Shown here: piece by piece, positions 5,010-20,900 of the stretch
How positions within the stretch are numbered: position 1 is the first letter of the stretch
How the letters are laid out: every line of letters starts with the position of its first letter
From: Tachypleus tridentatus
Lineage: Eukaryota; Arthropoda; Merostomata; Xiphosura; Limulidae
Direction of reading: 5' to 3'
Length of the DNA stretch: 64,000 bases
NCBI RefSeq assembly: GCF_004210375.1
Contig: NC_134829.1
Span: forward strand, 58,892,107 to 58,956,106
The notes under the pieces: model-generated
The model's input: the letters and a program-made list of their open reading frames with translations, nothing else
Databases searched by the model: none
Told to the model about the DNA's origin: nothing
Program-made: the position numbers and the translations under genes

Positions 5010-6134
5010 CAGGAATACCTCGTACAGGGCGGTTAATGCGTGGAAACACAACCGCATTGATTTAATCAGCATTGAACGGGGAATAGTTTCAACAGGAAAA
5101 ATAACGATACGTGGGTATCATAAGGGATTTTTCATAGTAGAAATAATTAAGCCTGATTAGTTAGAAAAATAGAAATAGTTATGAGGTAAAATAAAAGCGA
5201 TATTAATTTGTAAACTTTTGAATTTTTTGTAATTTTGAAAAAATAAAAAAAATTAAAATGTTACTGATTAAAGAAAATCTATCTCTTCTTGGTTGCACCA
5301 TTTTCTTTTTCTTTATTTCAATTCTCGGTAACATCGAATGACATTTTATAACCGCACTCCAGGTCTGAATCATGATTAAGTATGTAGCAGTTTCCACTGC
5401 CCGAAACATTGTTTCAAGTTCCAGTAAGATAAATCATTCTTCCTGCTCTTCACTAGCACCTTCGTTACACTCTGGACTTTCTTCTTCTTTCTGATATGCC
5501 CGATCTTGGTCTAAATTAAAGAGCGTATCATTGTCGAGAGTTTGAGAATGTGCGTAAATGCACTCTCGGACATTAGCCACGACCAAAGACTCGAAATAAA
5601 TAGTGTGTCCAATTTAGATGACGTCTTCGGAAACATCCCTAATTTCGGACTCAAAGCCGAAGGAATGACTTGCGCCATCAGGCAAAACGTGCTTCCACGT
5701 CGCTCTCGTGTTACTCTTGCTAACTTGGAACCATGCTTCGTTGATGTTTGCGACAGCACTTCTGATGTAATTTTTCCAGAATTCAGTCATAGATAGTGCA
5801 GCTTCTCTAGTTGTAGCCTTTCTTGCTTGAGAAAATGTTCGCTTAAAATAATTAGCTTTAAACGTCGCAATGACACCTTGATCCGTTGGTTGCAGTGGAC
5901 ATGTTCTATTGAATGGAAAAAAAGTGAATTTTGAGATTTTCGTAAAAGTCACAATGTCCCGTTAGACGGCTTGGTGCATTACCTAATAAAAACAAAGCTT
6001 TAAAGTCCAAGTTGTTTGTTTTCTTTGCAGTAATGTTCAGCTGTTGGACAAAATTAGCTTTTTCACCAGTCATCAAACAAAGTTTTCGTAATTCATACTT
6101 TTTTATTTGATCGCCAAACAAGTGAAAGGGTCTT
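5010..6134 (-). mobile_element. Tigger/pogo-type DNA transposon, 3' part (copy 1)
   Basis: Minus-strand frames give pogo/Tigger transposase pieces, including LQPTDQGVIATFKANYF, the familiar block after the second catalytic Asp, and FWKNY followed by NINEAW. The frames at 5614-5952 and 5906-6134 overlap out of phase, so the transposase is frameshifted. The plus-strand left end, near CAGGAATACCTCGTACAGGG, resembles a Tigger inverted terminus. The element stops abruptly at 6134, where the 14.4-kb transposon begins. Its missing 5' part resumes at 20501, as shown by colinearity with the Tigger copy at 35866-37345. Confidence 0.8.
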
Positions 6135-6520
6135 CCTAGCACGCAAGGTGACGTTGAATAAACGTTGAAATGAGGTTGGAAAGGTTGAAGAATGGTTGAG
6201 GTTGGATACTCAACGTCTAACCAACGTTGAGAATTGGTTGTATGGCCAACCATGCTAACTGCGTTGAGAGTGTAACGTTGATTAAACGTCGGAACAACGT
6301 CTGAATATTGACGTAGCCAATGGCGTTGAATATACGACATATAATCAACGTTGAGGACTTGTGGTATGGCCAACCATTGCAGTTACGTGGAGCGACAGAC
6401 GTTGATTCATCGTTGCATCAAAGACAAATTATCCACGTGAAAAAACACGACATTTATTCAATGTTGAGAACATGTAGTTTTGCTAAACGTTCAAATATCG
6501 TTGAGTGACAGACGTCAGGG
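6135..6520. repeat. Left terminal and subterminal AACGTTGA array
   Basis: After the terminal CCTAGCACGCAA, this stretch carries about a dozen exact or one-off copies of (A/C)AACGTTGA in both orientations, including CCAACGTTGAG, AATCAACGTTGAGG and GTAACGTTGATT. The palindromic core AACGTT recurs at irregular spacing. In EnSpm-type elements such arrays are where the element's DNA-binding protein acts. That role is known for plant En/Spm and inferred here. Confidence 0.8.
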
Positions 6521-6833
6521 GCGTAGCTAGAGAGTTATGAAAGTATATACGGTGTAGGGAGAGCCCCGCCTACCCACCCACCCAACAACAAAATTTTACG
6601 TGCAGACAGTTTCATAAACTGTAGGCCTATATGAAAACTTGGAATTCAACCGTGAATTACTTAAATTACCATGTAATTTTCGAGTGACAGGCCTTAAGCG
6701 TTTAATTTTTATCTATTTATGTTTAAAACTTTCTGACGACTTTCTTTTACATGTAATGCCGATTTGCGAAAAAAATAATCACCACTGCTGCAAAACCAAA
6801 AATGTCATCATTAAAAGTTCTTCTTTCACTGAA

Positions 6834-7011
6834 CAGTGGCGAATCCAGGGGGGGGGTAGGGGTTTAAACCCCTTGCCGGAAAAAATTACCTTTTTTTGCA
6901 GTATATTTCGTGAATTTCTAGTGCTAACCCCCCCCTCGGGGCCTTGTTCATAGGGTTTCTTCAGGTCCCATAGTCTGAACCCCCCTTTCCAAAATCCTAG
7001 ATCCGCCCCTG
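6834..7011. mobile_element. hAT-like MITE nested in the transposon
   Basis: The ends are CAGTGGCGAATCC and GGATCTAGG-type (other strand GATCCGCCCCTG). A perfect 5-bp direct repeat CTGAA flanks it at 6829-6833 and 7012-7016. It is 178 bp with no coding capacity. The CAG...CTG termini fit hAT-type elements, and 5-bp duplications are known for some hAT groups. Confidence 0.7.
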
Positions 7012-7141
7012 CTGAAAGATCACTTTTTCACATAAACTAAGTATGAAGTTGAATTCAGAAACTAGTAGTATATACATATATATTGATCACATCCTTTAAA
7101 TATAGTCAAGTAGAGATACAACGCATCAATATGAACACTTT

Positions 7142-7370
7142 CAGGGACGTATATTACCATTAAACCATGTATATAGACAAAAGTTGCGAGGGCGCGAAAG
7201 ACCCGGGGGGTAGGATATTAAAAATTTTCCAAAATTACATTATAAATGGGCTAAATTTAAACATATTGAAGCTTAGGAGAATGAAATTTATAGGACTGAA
7301 ATTATAAGATATATAATTCTGGACAGCCTTTGATGTTAAGGCAAATGCCTAATGGTAATATACGCCCCTG
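7142..7370. mobile_element. Second hAT-like MITE with 5-bp target duplication
   Basis: The inverted ends are CAGGGACGTATATTACCATT and, at the right, AATGGTAATATACGCCCCTG. The 5-bp direct repeat ACTTT flanks it at 7137-7141 and 7371-7375. It is 229 bp and non-coding, with different inner sequence from the MITE at 6834. Confidence 0.75.
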
Positions 7371-8359
7371 ACTTTGAAAAATGATACTGTAAGGAAAGTC
7401 AAAATGCTTTCAATGCTCTCTTCCTTAAAGAGCCATTGTTGTACACTATCAGTACAGACAATAATGCTGATTGTACTTCATCGTACGGGCAAATAGGAAC
7501 ATAGGAACTATCTTAGGGCAGATGACTGCAGAGACAGGGATGAATCTGTGGCTGGAGCAATCTATTATGACGAAACGGTAAAGATGCGAAGGAAAAATTT
7601 TGGAAAATGACCTTGTTTTGCCATTTCTCCCAAACTTCTATGTTGGTAATTGATCTCTCCCCTCCCCTGACGGTTTTTTCATCTGACCATCACCAGACGG
7701 GTGCAGAGGGTTATCTATTTTCAAAGTGACTAACAGAATGGGTGGTTAAAATAGCAAACATCATACTCGGTTTTGGAAATCTCCCAAGACTGCTGTCAGA
7801 CATAAATTTTCATTATTAAACTGATCGCAGAAAATTGTGGAATGTTGGCCGGAATATTTTGATCAGATAAAATTAATGATTTTTTACAATGACAACTATT
7901 TAAATTAAAAGTTTCTAGAAACTTAACATCAAACACGATGCCAACACACATTGAAGATCGAAGATTTGGAATCTTTACTGCAGTGCATGGTATTTTGAAA
8001 GAAAAGTATTTCTGTACAGAATTTCACCAAAATCTATTATACAGGCAAGTATTTCCATTCAATAATGAACGAACGATATAGAATAGGGCAGCCTAAAATA
8101 CTACCTTTTTTTTTGCTTGTCCAACCTGCGTCAGGGGGAGAGTCCCCCCAACCAAACTCCGCCGCCTATAACAATGATGCTAAAAGGCACAGGATAGGCC
8201 TAATTCTATATAGGGACTACCCTAGCCAATAATAATTATTATAGTCTTTATTTGTCGATAAATTGAAGTTGGTTGCAGGATTGATATCCCCTTCCCATAT
8301 GATAGACAATTTGTCATGCATGCATAATCGCGAGGGTAGATCTACCAATTTAAAGTTTT

Positions 8360-8753
8360 CATAGGCGGCGGAGCAGGGGGGGCCAGGGTGGTCCTGGCGC
8401 CCCCAACATTCCATGGTCAATATATAAATTTTGTGTTATCTTGCTCCTTTAGCTTGCTAGGACGCAATTTTTTCCTTCGGCGCGGATTTATATGATTTTC
8501 CTTGTCTACCTGGATGGTAAACATGCGTTGCCAGCATGTGTAAATTGTTAATGCTCTTTCGGTATTATTCACAGGTGTGTGAGACAAAACAAAAGACCCT
8601 TTTCTATATATCACTTCCCATTTACATATATTTATGAACACGATTTAACGTCAAGCATGAGACCTTGTGGGATTGGGGACTTTTTTTTTGCTCATCGCAT
8701 CCGAGCGTAGAGGTTGCACCCCCCCCCAAAAAAATTTCGCTCCGCCGCCTATG
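8360..8753. mobile_element. Third nested MITE, CATAGGCGGCGGAG ends
   Basis: CATAGGCGGCGGAGC opens the element and GCTCCGCCGCCTATG closes it as a perfect inverted repeat. The 5-bp direct repeat GTTTT flanks both sides. A lone CTCCGCCGCCTAT end near 8157 suggests a second, partial copy. The element has no coding capacity. The frames that cross it are chance frames. Confidence 0.75.
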
Positions 8754-9060
8754 GTTTTCAAACATAATTTTGCGTATACCTTTATCGTTCCTACTTGCAT
8801 TGGTATACGTGGACGCCTTTGCATTTGACAACCGCGGCATGGTTCCCGCGCCCGCCACTATAGATCGCCGTGCGTGCAAACGTGACACATTTGGTATTTC
8901 GCATCACGATCTGTTTAGACTTAGTTTGGCCTTGTGCAGTCCAGCTCGTGTCTACAGGCTGAGCGCGGGGTGCACCAAAGCGATGCGGGTGGTTATCTGA
9001 TATCGCTGACCTACTAGTATCGCGCGCAAACCGTTGATAGCCTTTGTGTTAGCTGCGTGG
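8754..9060 (+). promoter_or_regulatory. GC/CpG-richer stretch upstream of the transposase, possible promoter
   Basis: Between the third MITE and about 9060 the sequence is notably richer in CpG than its surroundings, for example ACCGCGGCATGG, CCCGCGCCCGCC and TATCGCGCGCAAACC. It lies upstream of both transposon genes on their strand. A chance open frame spans it. A promoter role is inferred from composition and position only. No TATA box or start site stands out. From 9060 to 10140 I see nothing recognisable. Confidence 0.3.
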
Positions 9061-10141
9061 TCACTTGCTGAAGGAGACATTGCTCGTTAAGCACGTTCAG
9101 TACTGCTACCGTTGCCATCAAAGAAACCTGATTTTAATTCCAAAGGTTACTAGTACCAGGTACGTTAGGTCCAGTGAAATTAAGTTTTGCCTTTGGATAT
9201 TTGAAGCATTGCTTGCAAGTTTTGTGTATCCATCTAATTGGATAGAAACGGTATTAGTCAAACTGCATGTTCAAATTGGTGATTGTTGAAATTCAAAAAG
9301 ATTGTGATTAAGGTTGTGGAAGATTGGTTTGATTAATCACAAACATCGATCTTGAAGCCATTTCCGAGACTTCAAACCTACCTAGGGGCCTATTTAATGT
9401 AGGATATGCCGATCTTCCGATTTCAGTTGATTTTTTCACAAACTTGAGAAGAAATTTCAGTACTTTTTTAATACTGGTACCGTAGCTCTCAAAAGGCTAC
9501 ATCATAGTAGTATTAGGCATTGTTAAATAATGTAGCATAAGAAGTTTCTGATTCTGGGAAAAATTTGCCAATCTACCCAAGGCTATAGAGTCTATCTAAT
9601 TTGTACTGGCTCTCTGCTTGGTTCCAGTTGCTTACTCCTGTGGGCATTGTTTTCCTCCCTCTTCAATTTGCACTGTTGTAGGCCTTTATTGTTATTGAAA
9701 CATACAGAGCATCTTATTAATAGACACCCAAAGTAATTTTTTCGCTATATCTAATTGTTAGCTTAGATAGTTATTGTTACAAGTAGTTTTCTAAAGTTTC
9801 AAATTAATGGTATAATAGACTTGCTGTCACAGCTGTGAAGGGCAACAGGACATTAGTTTAATGGACTTAAATGCTTAATATTACCATAATTTTGGCCATT
9901 TTGCCCTGTGACTATGTGATCACTACAAATTCAGGGTCAGGGTTCCCATACCTCCTATTTCTGGAGTTCCTTAAAATTTGGCTGCATCCTTGCACATCTT
10001 GAAATTTGCAATTTCTTCCTGCTGCACAAAGAAAAAGTATTTAACCTTTGAATTAGAACCATTTAGTGAAGATCAATTGAAATATTTCAGTCCATTTTAA
10101 ATTCCTTATTAATCATAGGACTGTCATGAAATACAGAAACC

Positions 10142-12282
10142 ATGTCTGGAAAAAGACCAGCTTCTGAGAGAGGTATGGGAACATCACAGTGGAGCCTAAA
10201 AGGAGAGCTAAGCAAAAGCTGAGGAATATATTCTAGAAATTTGTGAAAATGGCACTGAAAAGGAAATGCATGTGAAAGAAAATGAATATTCAGTGTATGA
10301 GGAAGCCCATGCTTATGTTAACAATAGCGGGAACATTACTTTTTGGAAGGGGTGCAATGAAGATGGTGATTCTTCACCTTCAAAAAATGCAGGGAGCACA
10401 ACTGTGGAAGTGGAAAGTGAAGGTGACATTTCATGTAATACCATGTCTCAAGCTGAAACAGATGACAGAGATTTATACGGATTCATGATAGGCCCCAGTG
10501 ATCAGCCTTGTTTAGGTGATATTATGGCTCAAGAGCCAGTGAATAGGTTTTCTGATGATGATCACAATGATGATGAAGGTTCTGATGGAGAACCTGACTT
10601 GGCTGATGAAATAGGGTATTGGGCTGCAAAACACAAAATTACACACAGGGCACTTGGAGACCTTCTCCACATTCTTTGCAAAAAAAATCCAAGTTTGCCA
10701 AAAGATCCTAGAACTTTGCTTAAAACAAGCACTAGCATTACAGTTAAGCCTATTGCAGGAGGGTTGTATCACAATTTTGGAATATCTAAAGGAATTAACC
10801 AAATGCTGTATCCTGAATCTATTCCAGGTGTAAAAAAGTTGTTGCTCCAAATTAATATTGATGGGCTGCCATTATTTAAAAGTTCTAAACTGCAGTTTTG
10901 GCCTATTTTAGAATGCTGGACCATAAGGGCTTGAAACAACCATTTTTAATAGGCTTATTTGCTGGTAATTCCAAACCCCAAAATTTGGATGAATATATGA
11001 AAGATTTTGTGGAAGAAATGAAATATTTAGAAAGAGTTGGATTGAATTTTGGTGACAGACATTTCCAAATACGGATATCAGCAATAATTTGTGATGCTCC
11101 AGCAAGGGCAATGATCAAATGTTGTAAACCCTACAATGGATATTTTGGCTGTGACAAATGTAAACAGGAAGGGGCATGGTACAACAAGGTCACTTTCCAA
11201 GAGACTGATGCAACCTTAAGGACTGATGCAAGCTTTAGAGACATGCTGGATGAAAATCATCATACAGACATTCCATCTCCCTTGTTGGAGTTGGATATTG
11301 GTATGGTAACTCAGGTGCCTCTAGATTATATGCACTTGGTTTGTTTAGGTGTGATGCAACGTCTTCTTTTGTATTGGATAAAAGGGTCACTGACTTGCAG
11401 GTTGCCAAGTAGATCAGTGTTGGAGATATCTGGTAGGTTGTTAGCTTTGGCACCTTATTCTCCAAGAGAATTTGCGTGCAAACCCCGTGCATTAAGTGAG
11501 ATAGACCGATGGAAAGCTACAGAGAATTATTGTCTGATACATTCTTCAAGAATTTTGTTCTTCTCTCTGTAAGTATGTACATTTTGACCAGTCCACGTTT
11601 GTGTATTCATTATATGGATTATGTTAGAGAACTTTTGGTATTTTTTGTGAGAGAGTATACACAAATTTATGGCCACCAAGAAGTTGTCTACAATGTCCAT
11701 GGACTTGTCCATCTTGCCGATGAAGTGAATAGGTTTGGACCCCTAGATAATATATCAGCTTTTCCATTTGAAAATTTTCTTGGCAAAGTGAAAAAAATGG
11801 TTAGAAAACCACAGCATCCTATCCAACAAGTAGCTCGCCGAATTTCAGAGTCACAGAGCTTATTTAGGGGATCTGCATGTGACCAAAATTATCCTCTTTT
11901 GAAGATGGAGCACAGCAATGGTCCTGTTCCAGAATTATTTGAAGTTTACAACCAGTATGGCCAACTCTTTTTACCAAGATTTTGTATCACTTTGGATCAG
12001 GCAAACAATTGTGTGCTACTTAATGGGGAAATATGTATTGTGCAGAATTTGCTTGCCAAACATGGCCAATCTGAGGATATTTTCCTAGTTGTTAAACAGT
12101 TTGCAGAGGTAAATGACTTTTTCAAACACCCTCTGAGGTCTTCAGACTTAGGAATTCATCATGTTTCCAACCTGAAACCTGAATTAGTTGTGGTTTCAAT
12201 TTCCAGATTAAATGGAAAATGTGCTCTCTGGCCTAGCAAGTCAGGCTATATAGCAGTTCCACTCAATCATACAAATAAGTAA
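10142..12282 (+). pseudogene. EnSpm/tnp2-like DDE transposase, frameshifted
   Basis: The coding runs in three plus-strand pieces: 10212-10934, about 10898-11572 and 11509-12282. A likely start at 10142 (MSGKRPASER) is in a third frame. Landmarks in order are an acidic N-terminal region, LLQINIDGLPLFKSS with a first acidic residue, ICDAPARAMI with a second, a GYFGCDKCKQEG zinc-knuckle-like pair of cysteines, PLDYMHLVCLGVMQ, then YNVHGLVHLADEV and SAFPFENFLGKVKK with a Glu. The order Asp, Asp, CxxC, D.MH, HL.DEV and PFE..LG matches tnp2 plus DUF4218 transposases. Breaks lie near 10200, near 10910 (where a missing G would explain the shift) and near 11520, where about 15-20 residues also seem lost. 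The element is therefore not autonomous. The reading stops at 12282, about 800 bp before the second gene. Confidence 0.8.
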
Positions 12283-13083
12283 ATCAAATGCAGTGATGTG
12301 TCATATCAGGGGTTATTCTGTACACTTCAGGCCCTTTCCTACTAAAGAGAAAATTTTTTTTTTTTGGTTTTGGTATTTGGTGAAGGGGGAATTTTTTATT
12401 TGTGTATGGGTGTATATGTGTGTCGGGGGGGTATGTCAATTATAATAATTCTGCAAGGGAACAGGGGCCAAGGTGCTTTATCAGCTTCATACTTATGTAT
12501 GAGAAATACCATAATGTTCAACTGACTAACCTGTAGAAAGGGGGAACTGTTACAATGGAGCTGTAACATTCATGTCACATTACATCTATACAGCACAGGG
12601 TTTTCATTAGCTTTTACATAAGGAGGCAAGTTGAAAACTTCAGTAGCTAGGTTAAAATAGGTCTGTGTCTGTATATTTAACACTGTGAGGAACAAATTTC
12701 AGTGCTGGTAAATTGAACTGTATCACTCTGTAACAGGCAGTGAACCTGTTTACTGGCATTAAAAGCAAACCCTGACAGCAGCTTATAACAGGGGCCTTGA
12801 GAATATGCAGTTTGACTAATTTGGATGTTCAGGAGATTTTTTGGTATTTGTCTGAGTCCATTTTACAATTATAAAGTGAAAAAGGATAAGGTAATTTCTT
12901 CTTTAGCAAAGACTGAGTGAACAGATAATTTTATGTAGGTAGAGCATATACATTTACACAAATCTCACATCTGCAAGCAAATTTTGACATTGATATATTT
13001 TATGAATATTACTGTAGTATGTTTAGTATTTTAAATGGAAAATTGTAAAAATTAGAAAATCAGGTTAAAGGCAGCATAGTTAC
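12283..13083 (+). other. Intergenic stretch between the two transposon genes
   Basis: There is no open frame worth reporting and no repeat beyond poly-T and TGTG-type simple sequence near 12350-12430. It must hold the transposase 3' end and either the promoter of the DUF4806 gene or a splice link to it. Confidence 0.4.
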
Positions 13084-16000
13084 ATGGCTAATGTTGACAG
13101 ATCCAACCAAATGGAGGTGGAAATTAGAGAATATGTGATAGTAGTGTTCACAAAGGACAATGAAGTTGGGGTGGCACCATCAGACTGGCTATTGGATGAA
13201 CGCACCATTAAGTGGCCGAACAAAAAAGGTCAAAGCCTGAATAAAGCTGTTCTGGACAGAATGCCTCCAGAGGATCATTGGGATGAGTATGATGTTAGAG
13301 TCATCTATTCAGATGGTAAGTTGAAAACTACAATAATACATGGTGCATGGAAATTTATTTATGTTTCCACTTTGTGTCCATATAGATCTTAGTAGAGGAC
13401 GTGTTCTGTTATAAAGTATCTGTCTAGCAAAACATCATGAGGTACATTCCATATATGTCAACATAAAAAAAATCAAAACAATTTTTTAAAACCTGTCCTT
13501 ATCATAATTACATATGCATTTTAAGTAGTGGATGTGAACTGCATGTTGAGCAAGTACATGTAATGTTTAGTGAACCTGTGAGATGTTGGCAAACTGGAAG
13601 AATGACATCTGTTCCTCCGACGTCTGTTAGCACACTGACACAGGCATGCATGTACAAAGGTTTCTCAGGCCCTGCTCAGTGGAAGTCTACCTCTGTCTCC
13701 TGAATTTTTCAGATTTGAATATTTGAGTGACAGAAAAGTGATATACCTGTTACTTGAGACTCTTTTGTCTTTACAGATGACTATGTTAAGGTGAGAGGGA
13801 AATTAAGTTCTGCAGAGGACACCTCTTCTCTTGAAACAGATGATCCAGAAGCTAAAAATTCTGAAAATGGACCAAGAATTTGCACCAGAAAGAGAAAGTA
13901 TGCTTTGCTAGTGACTGCAGTTTTAAACAATTTGTCTCAAACTATCACATTTTCAAGTTAACACATACTGGCTAAGAAAAATATACTCCAATTACTTTAT
14001 CTCAAAACTATATGATAGCGGTACCTGTAAAATGTGAAGCTCACATTGGTTAGGGTTCAGCACTCGAATCACACACGTATAAGTAAATTGTAAATTGAAA
14101 TTAAAGGGATGGAATGAGAATTAAATCAAGCCATGTTTTTTTTCACTTTGCTAGAGCCTGACATAAATAGACAGATATGGTGACCTTGCAGGAACAGTCT
14201 CAGCTTAAAGTCAATATAAAATTGTACATTTTGTAATAGAACTAAATTTATTCATAATATTTGAATCTGATTTTATATTATGATGGGTGGTTGGTGAACT
14301 GTAAGACCATGTCAGCTGAGTAGGTCTATATATTTTAGAGTAAAAGATTCTTATTATGGGACCTCTCACAAGAAAAATGAGTGCATACTTGCCTTAGGCT
14401 TGAATTACATGTATATGTAGTTACTTGATCAAGGTGCCACTTCAGAATGAATGAAAATGATGTATACAAAAAAAAAAGAAGAAAAATAGCACTGTATTTT
14501 AAATGACAAACTTATTTTCAAAGTGACAAGCTATTTTCAAATTGAATAACTTTTTGGGTCACTTTAGCAAAGCAATATTAGCCTTCTAGATACATTTTTG
14601 TAAAAAATATGCTTCTTTTTGTATAGGCCCACACAGAGATTAGTTTCTGAGTCTGATAATGAGTCTGAGGCTGATGGGGAGAAGAATCAGCAAGTTCAGA
14701 ATTCCAAATCACAAAAACACAAGTCTGCAATATGGTCAGATGATCATGTGGATTTGGCTCAGCTGACCATACCTAAGCCACCAGAGCCAATAAGCAATGC
14801 TGGAGGGCATGTGATAGTGACCCCAAAAAGAAGATGTGTGTCAGGTAAACTACACAGTAAAATGTTACTCTAATGATAAAGGTTGCAGTTTCACTCAACA
14901 TTTTTATTAAACTACAAGTGCATCTTCTGGTTTAAGCTTTGCCATACACTCCATAATGTTGATACCATAACTGTCATCTTGCCATAGAATTATGTCCTTT
15001 TCCATTTTGTAGGTGAAGTCAACAGAATCCAGAGGACACTAACACCCCTGACAAACCATGGTAATGCATTTTTACTTCAATTACTGGTAGACATAGTAAT
15101 AGTATACACTCCTGTTCAGGGCATTCAGTAGATACAGGGCATTATGGATATGAAAAAAATTTTTAACCTTCTGAAATGTTTTATTTGCCTCATTGTATAT
15201 CTGTTAAACATGAAAACCCTGCCTAGTACTGTATCATCATGACAGGGCCACAGCCAGGCTTAAAAGGTGACAAAATATGACATGTTCTTCATGCAATGTA
15301 AATGCACGTGTTGTAGATCTCAATGGAAGCTCTCTTGTTGATGAGAACCAGCTGCCATTAGCTGGGCCCTCTGGCTCAGGTTCATCTTCAGGTACAATTA
15401 CTTGTGTATAAACCAAGAGCAAAATTTGCCATATTTTATATAACATCTTATTAAATATTTTTGAGAAAGGTATTTTAATTTCAACAAAGGCAGTTTCAAA
15501 ATTTACAAACGTAGTTCTGTGTAACAGGGGTGGATACAGGGTTTGCTTAAGGAGGGTGCCAGCCTTCTCCGAACCACAAACCAGTATTTTTCCACTCATA
15601 AGCACTACTTTGTTAGGTGAAGTTAGAAACTGGAAAACATAAAAATAGTACTTTAAGCATACAGGCACCCAGTCTTTAGGCCATCAATTTTCATGGGGGG
15701 GGGGCAAGGTGGCACAAGAATGCACCACAACCCACCACCACCCCCAATCTGCCACTGTAATTAACCTGTTTTAATACTGGTATTTATGTGCTTTTATTTG
15801 ACCACAATGAAGGGCAGGGAAAATATATATTCTTAAATTCACCTACCTTCTGTGGGTTTTTTTGTTTTGTTTTGCTGCCAACATTTCAAAGTATATCTGA
15901 AAGGTTCTGAAATGTTGTGGGTTCTGCAGATGTAACTGGAAATAAGATGTACCTGATTAACCTTATATGTAAGATATTAAAGAGTGGCAATAATTTAACT

Positions 16001-19000
16001 TGTAGAGATGCATGACAGTGATACAAGTAGGAGCTCCTCACCACAAAGAGAAATACACCCTGCCGTTCACAGTACACCATATTCTGGGATGTATACACAT
16101 ACATTATTTTGTATTATTATTGTTAGTGCTGTTATATTACAGTTAGTGCTGTTATATTACAGATATATTGATATGCTGCATCTAAACACATACTTTTGGT
16201 GTTACATCTCTCTGGTACTTTGAGATACATTTTATTAAACTCATTCCAAGGAATGTAGTAAAGTAGAAAAGGCAGCAAGATGAATCATTTAGCAGTATGT
16301 TTCCCCTCTGGACAATCTGTTGCATACCATAACCTATCTAAAATTTTGGCCCAGATTAATTAACCTGCTCTTCTATATACTGTATATGTGTATCTGCAGG
16401 TCCTAGAAGAAAGGTGAACAGCACTCCTCAGGTAGCTTCAACTCCCACCAATGGTAAATATGAATGTTTGTGTGGATTTGTTAAATGATTATGATGTATG
16501 CCAGAAATGATAGGCAGTGTACATTAAAAAATGTGAATGCCTGTACAATGCTGAGTTTCCATCGCTTTGGGTTGGGCTAGGCCCCCAGAAAACCTAGGTT
16601 TACAGACTCGGGCACTGGAGTTGGTGACTTGGACCATTTTTTCTTGGTCTGGCCTAACTTGTAAATAAGTGTTTATTTTTCATGTCAGAAATTTAAACTA
16701 AGCTTCATTTAGTTTGTAGCAATATAGCAATCACCAGAATCAAGCAAGTAATTTGTAAATTTATCATGATAGAAGTCATACTTTTATTGTTTTTATAGTT
16801 GCAGCCAATATAAACACATTATTAATAAATGGAATTTTCCATTTTTAAATAAAAAGGTGCTGCAGGAATCACACAGACAGAAAGAAAAATTCTTCAGGTG
16901 CTAGCAGAGCTACAACAAAAAGTGGACATGAATACAGGCCTTCTGCAGACTTTGCTGAGAGGTCGGCCTGCCAGCACCAACTCATCCATAAATCTGTCTG
17001 TGTGGCCACAGGGTCTCCCAGCTCTGCCGCTTAGTACAATGGATGGGTTCAACACCCTGAATGACAAAGTTATGATTCAGCATAATGCAGATGCTGTCGT
17101 AAGTAAATCTGAATTAACTAGATTTTAGGGAGAATAAAGGGATTTACAGTAGTGTATGTATGTCAAAGGCAAATGAATTGTATGATGACCTCCTCAACGG
17201 ATGCTGAATGTTTCTGAGTTTAAACTATCATGGTTTCTATGCATGAACATTGATTCTGTTTTACAGGTACTTTATCCATAAATGTGTTCCAGAGATCTTA
17301 CCTTTGAATTCAATGAAAAAGAATGATGAATATTAAAGCATATGCAATAATCAGTTTATGGAAATGTATTTTCAATATAAATTATGTGCATCAGTTAACA
17401 CATGATAGATGCAATTTTCATTCTGGAAATATCATGAAATTTTGTAGGTGAGGAAGCTAAGTATGAGGGGTGGTGACAGTGTGGATGCTGTCACAAGAAA
17501 TGTACTAACAGGTCTAATGACCAACAGCCTTGCCAGCCAGTTCAACTGGATGGGACATGAAAGGAAAAAAAGACAAGATGATGGGACCTTAGTTACCATA
17601 CCAAAGAAGGCCATATCTACAACAAATTTGTTACAAGTCATTAACAGTAAGTGTCATTAACTGACATATTTGTCAGTCTTCCTTCATTTGCTAGATATTC
17701 AGAGCAAATTAAGTTCCTCTGTCAGACACTTAGATGGAAATTTGAAATCTTCAGCTATTGTCTCCTTGCATAGACAGTAGGTTGAAAATTTTTAATGATA
17801 TCAGATAACATTGGGCATTGGGTGAGTGTGATGCTGAGTGACCTTGACTAAATTCCAATGTCACAGAATGTTTTTTTTTTCTGGATTTTTCAAAGCTGGG
17901 GTTGTGACATGAATAAGTTGCAAAGGTTTAGAGATAGGAAAGTCAAATTTATATCAATTATGTATCTGGCCAAATTCTCAAATGAGTGTGATCATGCATG
18001 TCCTTCACTTACTTTTCGAGGTTACAGCAAGGCTGGAAAAAGCAGTATTGCATCGAAGTTTGTGATGCAAAATGCACCTGCTGTAATCTTATTTTTTTTC
18101 AGTGTGCATGCTGATCAAACCATGTGGTAAATACATGTACAGCTAATCAATTGTGATTAATTATTTTCAAGCCTTGTACAGGGTGATGTTCCTGAACTTG
18201 TTGAATTTTGGCTTGTGACAAGGATAAGTTGCAAAAATTTCGAGCTAGGACAGTCAAATTAACATTAATAATGCCTCTCATCCAGATCTTAGGAATGGAA
18301 ATTAAAAACAATCAACTATCTCATCAAGATCTTGGCCAACTTTAATGATGAGTGATACTGACCTACTTTTCAAGGTCATAGATTAATTTAACTGAAATGT
18401 TTAAAGGTAGGCTTGTGGCATATGTGATATGGGATATATTGTTACAGCTTTATGCAGGGAGGGGGATATTTTTCATTTGTATGTCTCTTCAAGATCTAAG
18501 CAAGGTTGATGATGATCCACCCTGATCTACTTTTCAAGGTCACAAAGCAATTAGAATTATTTTCATTGGTGACATGGATAAGTTATGGAAGGTTAGAAAT
18601 GGGACTGATATTTATATCAGTTCATCAGTTACCATTCTTAATTGTTTTCAGTGGTAGGCTTGGGACATGGATCAGTTGTGGAGGATAAGAGTTGGAGGTG
18701 TAGAATTTGTAACAGTTGTGTACTTTATCGAGATCTTGGATTAGCTTTATGATGAGTAACCTTGAGGTGCTTTGAGATTTTGAGGCTTTCCTTTACTGGG
18801 GCACGAGGGCTGAGGGGCGTTGCACTGGCCTGCAGTGCATTTTTATCCGTATGCTTCAACTGACAAAACAGTAATCCAAAAATGATGGGTGAGAATCTGC
18901 TTTATTCGACCTACTTTAATTAAAATAATAGTTTCAAAGTCAATATTTAGATAAATAAATGTAAATAATGGGACTTTTCTTTGCAGGAGCTGTCAGGGAT

Positions 19001-19093
19001 AATCCTGTGGCTGAGATGGCATCAGATGATGTCATCAAGAAGACTGCACAGAGTTGGTTGAAATATGCTGCCTCTGGGAAGCAGGAAAAGTGA
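13084..19093 (+). CDS. DUF4806-domain protein encoded by the transposon, ten exons
   Basis: Ten exons join into one 458-codon frame without an internal stop: 13084-13315, 13777-13897, 14627-14844, 15013-15060, 15317-15391, 16006-16086, 16400-16453, 16857-17098, 17448-17646 and 18987-19093. Donors and acceptors are GT/AG and phases agree throughout. The one exception is the exon 6 donor, which reads GGATGT where GTATGT is expected. Residues 14-77 form a compact module (REYVIVVF, VAPSDWL, MPPEDHWDEYDVRVIY) that I recall at the N terminus of DUF4806 proteins. A Ser/Lys/Pro-rich middle follows, then a heptad-like helix (ILQVLAELQQKVDMNTGLLQ) in exon 8. The C-terminal DUF4806 domain covers about residues 335-450 (VLTGLMTNSLASQFNWMG, and TAQSWLKYA at the end). 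The molecular function of DUF4806 is unknown to me. Position inside the element suggests a transposition accessory or DNA-binding role. Confidence 0.82.
15525..15756. mobile_element. Probable hAT-like MITE in intron 5 of the DUF4806 gene
   Basis: The ends are CAGGGGTGGATACAGGG and, on the other strand at the right, CAGTGGCAGATTGGGGG, an imperfect inverted repeat of the same style as the left-arm MITEs. The flanks share only TAA, so the 5-bp duplication is not clear. Confidence 0.5.
17820..18780 (+). repeat. Diverged tandem repeats in intron 9 of the DUF4806 gene
   Basis: About four old copies of a roughly 200-bp unit recur. Shared phrases include GACATGGATAAGTTG, GGTTAGAGATAGGA, AGATCTTGG and TACTTTTCAAGGTCA, followed by a GATGAGTGA-type run. 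Copies have drifted and contain no gene. They account for most of the 1.3-kb intron. Confidence 0.6.
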
Positions 19094-19104
19094 AAGAAAG
19101 AAAA

Positions 19105-19650
19105 CTTGGTACAGTGTGAGGACAATATAGGGTGTCAATACACATGAAACAGTTATTCTGTCAGATCCAAGATGACCAACTGGATTTGCACAAAATCGTC
19201 TGGATTTGCTACCAGTGACCAAGAAGATGTTCATGGACACTGTTTTGTCATATTTCATGCAAATCACAAAATAAAGTGACATGCATCAATGGCAATAATG
19301 GTCCTTGCACCCTGCTGCATTTCTTATAATTCACCTTGTAGACTTATATGAGAAATCGCCATCTACACACATCAAAGTCATCCCATGCTTTAGCTTATAG
19401 GAGGCAGTCAACCATAATTGTGGACAAAGTTTTCTCAGAGATCTGTGATAGGAATTTATTGCAACTTGGTACACTGTGAGGGCAAAATGGAGTATCAATG
19501 CATGAAAAACAATTCTGATCAGATTCAGTATGGCTGACTGGTCACGCAAAAGATGCAAAATAAGTGGAATTTGTTACCAGTGGCCATGAGAATGTTTACG
19601 GACATTGTTCTGTCATATTTCACACAATATACAAATTAAAGTGATGTTTA
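19105..19650 (+). repeat. Two related ~190-bp segments after the DUF4806 stop
   Basis: AACTTGGTACA(G/C)TGTGAGG and GTCATATTTCA(T/C) occur in both copies in the same order, about 357 bp apart. Both end close to AAATAAAGTGA or AAATTAAAGTGA. The first contains an AATAAA near 19270 that could serve as the polyadenylation signal of the DUF4806 gene. Confidence 0.6.
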
Positions 19651-20075
19651 TCAGTAATAAATTTCACTACTGCTTAAACGTTGTGTCATTGTTATCCTTC
19701 AAGATAAAGACTAAGTGAGCTGACCTTTCCTCCCCAACTCAGTGAAATTTGCTCAGTGAGCTTGTTTGGCCAAGTCTTTCCACAAAAAAAGTTACAAATC
19801 TCCCTTCACACATCAAGCTTTTAGAACCCTGATGTTACTGGAATTAGCAAAGTTGTAATACTATGTATCTGACTGATTCTTGATACTCTTAACCACTATC
19901 TATAACTTATTTAATCTGTTGCAACCAGTGCATGTTTTAGCTTAGTAATGTTTGTTGATTCTTGTATTAGTATGGGAGCAGACATTAATAAGCTTCTCAG
20001 CTTGCGTCCAATACCCATTGGTGTTCATTATCCAATAAAATATTCACAAACAAGCAAGCAAAGTTGTATAAGGTC

Positions 20076-20498
20076 TTGTAACTGACCAAATATCAACGTT
20101 TAGCCAATGTATTCTCAACGTCGTAAATGACCAAATATCAACGTTTAGCCAACGTATTCTCAACGTCGTAAATGACCAAATATCAACGTTTAGCCAACGT
20201 ATTCTCAACGTCATACCTACCTAACTACACCATTGCAATCAACCTTTCTTCCACGTTGATCAACGTTTTTTCAACGTCATGCCTACTGTACCTCAAATGT
20301 TGGGAACAACGTTGCTTCCTACTGTTGCTCAAATGTTGGGAACAACGTTGCTGTTGCTCAACGTTTTATCAACGTTTTTTTTTTCAATGTGGACTCGATG
20401 TGCACATCAATGTTTATTCAACGTTGATGATCAACGTCTTTGCAACGTTATTTGCCAACGTTGTTTCAACGTCAAATCAACGCTTTTTGCTGGCTGGG
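20076..20498. repeat. Right subterminal AACGTT array with a 45-bp tandem triplet
   Basis: Three 45-bp units start at 20076, 20121 and 20166. Each contains GACCAAATATCAACGTTTAG and TATTCTCAACG. They are followed by a dense run of CAACGTTG and TCAACGT motifs, and then by the terminal GCTTTTTGCTGGCTGGG. A chance open frame of about 150 codons crosses the array and is not a gene. Confidence 0.8.
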
Positions 20499-20500
20499 TT

Positions 20501-20900
20501 CTTTGCACAGCCACTAAGTGCCCGGGGAACGTCTGCACGATACACAAGCATGAGTTTTTATTTAAACTATCCAGATGCATTTCCAATTAACAAAAGTTTC
20601 AAACAATCTTTTGACGTTTTGTAAATTGACTGAGTGTTTTTTAATTTTCTGACAGAAAAGTTCTAGAAAACACTTTTCCAACATAAACCAGTTTCATCAA
20701 CATGAAAAAACTGCTTATCTTTGCACCGAACTTTTTCAATAATTTTTATAAATTAAATGGGAAATATTTCAGCACCATCTACGTCTTTATTTGATCTTTT
20801 GCCTGCAATTCGAATATTATGAACCACAGAGCGTTTTTTAAAACGAAATAACCAACCATGGCTTGATGAAAATGTTTTCTAAATTGCCCCTTATCCGTTG
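20501..20900 (-). mobile_element. Tigger/pogo-type transposon, 5' part (copy 1, displaced)
   Basis: From TTCTTTGCACAG onward the sequence is colinear with 36987-37345 of the other Tigger copy. Shared stretches include GATACACAAGCAT, AAAGTTCTAGAA and CAATTCGAATATTATG. It continues the element cut at 6134. On the minus strand it encodes the region before the second catalytic Asp. The outer end is diverged and I cannot place its terminus. Confidence 0.75.

What the first reader, a model, noticed from the sequence alone, without database searches (positions are those of the whole stretch)
6135..20498. A two-gene, 14.4-kb EnSpm-like transposon with non-CACTA ends and a TT target duplication
The sequence shows one insertion with exact edges, CC(T/C)AGC-type inverted ends and two same-strand genes: a tnp2-like transposase and a ten-exon DUF4806 gene. 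Animal EnSpm-like elements are known, but I do not recall one described with this second gene and these ends.
Basis: partly seen in the sequence, partly recalled or inferred. Interest (0 to 1): 0.85.

Follow-up and report, generated by a model that had tools for sequence, protein, structure and literature searches.

The report
Animal CACTA-type transposon with DNA-binding partner gene
A 14-kb jumping gene in an animal genome carries, besides its cutting enzyme, a second gene for a probable DNA-binding protein of a little-studied family, an arrangement much like that of the classic maize Spm transposon.

Summary
Window 6135-20498 (14,364 bp) is one insertion with exact edges, a TT target duplication and a surviving empty site. 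Its ends are CCCAGC-type (the T in CCTAGC is a private change). It carries a transposase, broken in this copy, and a downstream ten-exon gene that reads open for 466 codons and ends in a DUF4806 domain (sub-threshold Pfam match). All 8 copies found with both ends (6 independent sites) carry gene-2 exons; 5 of 6 sites show a 2-bp duplication; all 66 genome matches to gene 2 lie inside copies. So gene 2 belongs to the element.

The ends are not new: CCC termini, 2-bp duplications and the transposase motifs are those of TRC elements, the animal branch of CACTA/EnSpm (SmTRC1, 2006). New, as far as the open papers searched show, is the DUF4806 partner. [quoted passage not shown] Both ends hold clustered ACGTTG motifs, often paired 11 bp apart. 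I propose gene 2 is a TnpA-like protein binding those motifs. A decayed related family in the same genome has a similar gene in the same place, suggesting an old pairing; that homology is suggestive, not proven. New variant of a known kind.

The parts
6133..6134 (.). target site duplication TT, left copy
   Evidence: empty site has one TT, filled site two
6135..6146 (+). left terminal inverted repeat CCTAGCACGCAA (CCCAGC... in 7 of 10 left ends)
6151..6404 (.). left subterminal ACGTTG/CAACGT motifs (10 by overlapping count), two same-strand pairs 11 bp apart
10212..10934 (+). transposase, first open frame; holds motif I (LLLQINIDGLPLFKSSKLQFWPI) with the first catalytic D
10889..11572 (+). transposase, second open frame; second D (IICDAPA), CXXC (CDKC), TRC box A (LDYMHLVCLG)
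11500..12282 (+). transposase, third open frame; NVHGLVH and SAFPFEN; sub-threshold DUF4218
13084..13315 (+). gene 2 exon 1 (start codon; N-terminal part)
13777..13897 (+). gene 2 exon 2
14627..14844 (+). gene 2 exon 3
15013..15060 (+). gene 2 exon 4
15317..15391 (+). gene 2 exon 5
16006..16110 (+). gene 2 exon 6
16400..16453 (+). gene 2 exon 7
16857..17098 (+). gene 2 exon 8 (DUF4806 match begins)
17448..17646 (+). gene 2 exon 9 (DUF4806 core)
18987..19093 (+). gene 2 exon 10, stop TGA
20094..20472 (.). right subterminal ACGTTG/CAACGT motifs (24 by overlapping count), eight same-strand pairs 11 bp apart, part of them in a 45-bp tandem repeat
20487..20498 (-). right terminal inverted repeat (reads CCCAGCCAGCAA on the minus strand)
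20499..20500 (.). target site duplication TT, right copy

Best explanation
The feature is a cut-and-paste DNA transposon of the TRC branch (animal relatives of CACTA/EnSpm). A DDE transposase cuts at CCC...GGG ends and inserts with a 2-bp duplication (structure and empty site shown; chemistry inferred from the family). The second, ten-exon gene encodes a 466-aa protein ending in a DUF4806 domain, which a paper calls a BEN-type DNA-binding domain. The proposal, which is inference, is that it works like TnpA of maize Spm: it binds the ACGTTG clusters next to both ends, in pairs spaced about one helical turn, and so brings the ends together for the transposase and/or controls the element's own promoter. 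This copy is no longer autonomous because its transposase is broken, although its gene 2 reads open. The pairing of transposase and DUF4806 gene is probably older than this family.
For: Exact edges, empty site, TT duplication. 2-bp duplication at 5 of 6 independent sites: TT, TA, AC, AA, AA (chance 5e-6 to 6e-5). Transposase motif I, TRC box A, CXXC, H(3)H, two D 78 apart, later E (motif I in 0 and box A in 8 of 20,000 shuffles). Gene-2 exons in 8 of 8 copies with both ends; 66 of 66 genome matches inside copies. ACGTTG: 34 in the 830 end bases against 22 in the other 63,172; 10 same-strand pairs at 11 bp against a chance mean of 0.94, highest 6 in 20,000 placings; 7 of 7 other two-ended copies show 10 motifs left and 13-29 right. 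DUF4806 as BEN subtype: PMC11075544 passages. TnpA binding subterminal repeats in Spm: PMC2613891 passages. Decayed family X (3 loci on 3 contigs) has a gene behind the transposase on the same strand whose N-terminal exons match only those 3 loci at E 0.01 and whose core, seen at 2 of the 3, aligns to window exons 8-9 without a gap with the intron at the same residue and phase.
Against: DNA binding by gene 2 was not tested; no structure was obtained (the one job accepted was unfinished) and no solved structure matched exons 9-10. Pfam calls DUF4806 only below its cut-off. Gene-2 exons are no more conserved between copies than introns, with 12 synonymous to 29 non-synonymous differences from the window (313:1088 sites), so no selection is visible. 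Homology to family X is modest: hhalign E 0.016, no Pfam match, and when splice signals are not required an unrelated placement on the other strand of L044 scores 51 against 49 for the proposed one. The C11 site shows no duplication (AC/TA). In Hydra-paper counts, some cnidarians have the transposase-side domain DUF4218 with almost no DUF4806 (12 and 1; 4 and 0; 5 and 0).
Confidence: 0.65

Rival explanations
1. The DUF4806 gene is a passenger: a host gene caught once by this family and carried along without a role in transposition.
For: No selection signal among copies; family-Y and C-terminal family-X similarity is weak; in Hydra-paper counts DUF4218 occurs in cnidarians with little or no DUF4806.
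Against: No match to this protein was found outside the copies (66 of 66 inside; the tool calls its counts lower bounds). 8 of 8 two-ended copies keep gene-2 exons. Family X has a gene of like build in the same place. In Spm and SmTRC1 too the second product follows the transposase (PMC1636069).
Confidence: 0.2
2. Gene 2 counters host silencing or controls element transcription (chromatin recruitment by a BEN protein) rather than bringing ends together.
For: [quoted passage not shown] TnpA itself also acts on the Spm promoter (PMC1636069).
Against: Motif clusters lie at both ends, not only at the promoter side, and more at the right end (24 against 10).
Confidence: 0.3
3. Two unrelated features: a transposon fragment beside a host DUF4806 gene, with the ends matching by chance.
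For: None left after the copy survey.
Against: 6 independent insertions share both ends and both genes or parts of them (C2 keeps only the last bit of the transposase); an empty site exists.
Confidence: 0.01

Closest known systems
TRC elements (SmTRC1 of Schistosoma, Tribolium and Aedes TRC; DeMarco et al. 2006, PMC1636069)
   Same: CCC first bases, 2-bp duplication, transposase motif I, box A and CXXC, spliced second products downstream of the transposase
   Different: [quoted passage not shown] SmTRC1 is about 4.5 kb with 54-bp inverted repeats; this one is 14.4 kb with short imperfect ends and ACGTTG clusters
Spongebob_HMa / EnSpm-4N1_HM of Hydra (PMC4298943)
   Same: Ends CCCAGCCAACATTGAC and 2-bp duplications; the end even holds a CAACATTGA close to the CAACGTTGA seen here
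   Different: 5.8 kb; the authors could not find the exact transposase; no second gene in the passages seen
En/Spm (TnpD + TnpA) and other plant CACTA elements (PMC2613891 passages)
   Same: Transposase, plus a multi-exon DNA-binding protein, and many subterminal repeats at both ends
   Different: CACTA ends, 3-bp duplication; in the passages seen TnpA is not tied to DUF4806 or BEN
Plavaka, ESTA and fungal EnSpm with TET/JBP genes (PMC12730594 passages)
   Same: CMCT transposase with C(2)C and H(3-4)H; accessory gene inside the element
   Different: Other ends (Plavaka TGT or CATCA, fungal EnSpm CAC) and another accessory gene

Membership tests
TRC (animal CACTA) | Terminal inverted repeats begin CCC | tested here: met
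   CCC in 7 of 10 left ends; CCT in 3 that share one flank; right end GGG in 8 of 8
TRC (animal CACTA) | 2-bp target duplication | tested here: met
   5 of 6 independent sites, empty site
TRC (animal CACTA) | Motif I of Transposase_21, box A [LVI]DX[LM]HX3LG, CXXC | tested here: met
   patterns as printed in PMC1636069
TRC (animal CACTA) | Pfam Transposase_21 match | tested here: not met
   No PF02992 match up to E 5 or E 1; only sub-threshold DUF4218. A model score rather than a motif, but a miss
TRC (animal CACTA) | Transposase clusters with TRC in a tree | not testable with these tools
   No collection of named animal transposases on hand
CMC/CMCT superfamily | D, D, E with C(2)C and H(3-4)H between second D and E | tested here: met
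   CDKC at 213, HGLVH at 410, D116, D194, E434 in the 587-aa frame of copy C11b; the E is assigned by position only
Plant CACTA (En/Spm proper) | CACTA ends and 3-bp duplication | tested here: not met
   CCCAGC ends, 2 bp
DUF4806 (PF16064) | Score over Pfam's cut-off | tested here: not met
   18.9 against 25 bits, E 0.002, profile 7-78 of 90; membership is therefore likely, not formal
BEN DNA-binding domain | BEN fold | not tested
   Structure job accepted but unfinished; rests on PMC11075544 citing Pan et al. 2023, which I did not see

The most novel reading that the evidence does not exclude
Animal TRC/CACTA elements as a class carry a BEN-type (DUF4806) partner protein that does the job of maize TnpA, evolved independently, and the unexplained abundance of DUF4806 genes in Hydra, a beetle and a zebrafish gene block is largely this transposon gene or host genes derived from it.
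Probability: 0.35. Interest if true: 0.75.

Novelty: new variant of a known kind. Interest (0 to 1): 0.55.

Why it matters
It gives an orphan domain family (DUF4806) a concrete setting and a testable function, and it suggests that animal CACTA relatives solved end recognition as the plant ones did, with a separate DNA-binding protein, but of a different kind. If general, DUF4806 genes listed as enriched in Hydra (PMC7642931: 69 and 54 genes in two Hydra species against 0-6 in five other cnidarians) and in an ambrosia beetle (PMC13270666), and four in a zebrafish gene block (PMC11075544), should be re-read as transposon genes or their domesticated relatives.

Tried and rejected
Rejected: that the ends are new (PMC1636069, PMC4298943); that CC(T/C) is family variation (one insertion and its duplicates); that the duplication is always TT (it varies); chance joining of host gene and element (copy survey).

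Led nowhere: Pfam family search for DUF4806 over the genome (no match, but no control genome gave one either); viral-contig scans with both proteins (none); PDB sequence searches (none; one match at E 1.2, judged chance); the Hydra end pattern in this genome (18 one-mismatch places against 8 for the reversed control, none exact); selection test (no signal); ends of families X and Y (five of their six loci: no clear pair seen). Blind tblastn of gene-2 exons against loci L041-L044 gave only E 0.06 or worse, and reversed sequence E 0.5 or worse; the X-family gene was recognised by reading the frames, so that step was post hoc. The splice-aware scan put the L043 site first of 56 sequences (24; L044 second with 23, using the proposed donor but another acceptor; best unrelated 21), a narrow margin; without splice signals an unrelated placement beat it. 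Family Y (L041, L047, L048) shows a similar N-terminal piece only weakly.

Structure: searches were answered 'busy'; one search was accepted, and searches found it unfinished.
Full report
What is there. The window lies in an unnamed 2.17-Gb genome, which I take to be an animal's. Window 6135-20498 is a single insertion of 14,364 bp. A search with 6100-6300 finds element copies that begin at 6135 and repeat copies that hold the flank; a search with 20380-20560 gives the mirror picture at 20498. A surviving empty site (L040) reads gggtcTTctttgc, so TT was duplicated. The host sequence is itself a repeat; the minus-strand frame 5614-5961 has a DDE_1 domain (E 5.5e-8), which I read as a pogo/Tigger-type transposon (the name is recalled).

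Copies. Ten left ends were found by pattern with up to 2 mismatches (0 for the reversed control), and eight copies have both ends. These eight stand at six independent sites: the window and C5b share flanks, and so do C11a and C11b. Duplications are TT, TA, AC, AA and AA; the C11 site shows AC and TA, that is none. Counts are lower bounds, as the tool says.

Ends. CCCAGCNNGCAA on both sides; 9 of the first 12 bases match between the two ends in this copy (my reading). The window's CCTAGC is shared only with the two other copies that have the same flank.

Gene 1. The transposase is in three overlapping frames here. Other copies hold longer frames: 587 aa in C11b, 500 aa in C9b, 453 aa in C5b, 444 aa in C11a, none of them complete. 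The 587-aa frame has motif I, box A and CXXC as printed for TRC elements and the H(3)H of the CMC group, all tested. Pfam gives only DUF4218, below cut-off.

Gene 2. Ten exons with GT...AG introns give 466 codons without a stop. Pfam finds DUF4806 at residues 341-422, E 0.002, below cut-off. Of the seven other copies with both ends, five (C9a, C11a, C11b, C2, C5b) have all ten exons, C9b lacks part of exon 3, and C19a lacks exons 3-5 and the end of exon 10; the exons joined as they stand have frame changes or stops in six of the seven, and stay open in C9b. The left-only copy C19b keeps exons 1, 2 and most of 5; the left-only C5c keeps only the first 2 kb of the element. A protein search of the whole genome gave 66 matches at E 0.001, all in these copies. 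Aligned bases of other copies differ from the window by about 0.5-1.4% (C5b 0.1-0.3%; C2 2 of 66 transposase bases), exons 0.8-1.4% and introns 0.55-0.94% without C5b, so no exon constraint shows. I read this as one fairly recent spread followed by neutral decay.

Subterminal repeats. ACGTTG is found 34 times (both strands) in the 830 bases of the two ends and 22 times in the other 63,172. Ten same-strand pairs stand 11 bp apart; random placing gave a mean of 0.94 and never more than 6 in 20,000. Some pairs sit in a 45-bp tandem repeat and are not independent. All seven other two-ended copies show 10 motifs on the left and 13-29 on the right, against 1-6 in the whole interior.

Is the pairing older than this family? 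By my count one search lists 18 places outside these copies with weaker transposase matches (27-52% identical, most with stops); I fetched nine of the 18 (L041-L049). Three (L042, L043, L044; family X, 37-44% identical to the window family) share a second gene about 0.3-0.65 kb behind the transposase on the same strand. Its N-terminal exons match nowhere else in the genome at E 0.01 (4 matches at these 3 loci). Its core was seen in L043 and L044, not in L042, and aligns with window exons 8-9 without a gap, with the intron at the same residue and phase (L044: 58 residues, 0 of 20,000 shuffles reach the score; L043: 37 residues, 24 of 20,000). L044 has lost the AG of that acceptor. The N-terminal comparison is weak (hhalign E 0.016; 54 of 5000 shuffles), and Pfam finds nothing in the pieces. 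A splice-aware scan over 56 sequences ranked L043 first by a narrow margin, and without splice signals an unrelated placement does as well. Family Y (L041, L047, L048) has an N-terminal likeness (against the window hhalign E 0.011, and 8 of 5000 shuffles; X against Y E 0.0014). In L045, L046 and L049 one search showed no convincing second gene. I read this as probable, not proven, common descent of the two-gene plan.

Mechanism. In Spm, TnpD is the transposase and TnpA binds subterminal repeats; both are needed (PMC2613891 passages; PMC1636069). Here the order is the same, the repeats are there, and the second protein ends in a domain that a paper calls a BEN subtype (PMC11075544, passages, citing Pan et al. 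2023, which I could not read). Binding is inference.

Literature. Searches: DUF4806 with transposon (3 papers), DUF4806 (4 papers), EnSpm with CCCAGC (2), BEN domain with transposon and DNA-binding (15, listing only apart from PMC11075544), EnSpm with TnpA, subterminal and animal (0), CMC-EnSpm terms (1), CACTA/Mirage/Chapaev/Plavaka (16), TnpA/TnpD/subterminal/CACTA (2), SmTRC1 (10), BEN domain with EnSpm (0). Of the 4 DUF4806 papers I saw passages of 3 and only the listing of PMC11445403; no passage links DUF4806 to a named transposon. The library is open-access only and Repbase was not on hand, so earlier description there cannot be excluded. In the Hydra paper DUF4806 is enriched in both Hydra species (69 and 54 genes against 6, 0, 1, 0, 0) in one table with many transposase-type domains, and DUF4218, the domain my transposase matches weakly, is enriched in H. 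viridissima (47 against 13, 16, 0, 12, 4, 5); the two do not go in step in the other cnidarians. The beetle paper lists DUF4806 among enriched domains. Seen of PMC1636069: abstract and outline, the first two of six parts of the text, and two sections; of the other papers, passages or listings only.

Noticed in passing
window 5614-5961 (-) and flanks: The element sits inside a repeat with a DDE_1 (pogo/Tigger-type) transposase domain that has many copies in the genome, which is why empty sites survive.
   Followed up: partly
G000:C5 58.85 Mb, 58.90 Mb (window), 59.07 Mb: Three places share the same insertion and left flank, so this part of the contig looks segmentally duplicated; the third copy (L038/L039) keeps only the first 2 kb of the element.
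   Followed up: partly
G000:C11 1.30 Mb and 1.63 Mb: A second duplicated insertion, with no matching target duplication (AC/TA).
   Followed up: no
window 17878-18725 and 19103-19653: Diverged internal repeats in the last intron of gene 2 and just behind the gene (60-77% alike), of unknown meaning.
   Followed up: no
window 8815: Copies C9a and C9b hold about 220 bp more here; the window copy looks deleted at a short CTT match.
   Followed up: partly
window 6600-10100: About 3.5 kb of the element before the transposase has no frame over 120 codons; its content was not searched against Pfam.
   Followed up: no
L043:6897-7259 (+): A THAP-domain frame (E 9.9e-16) a few kb behind the decayed family-X element.
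   Followed up: no
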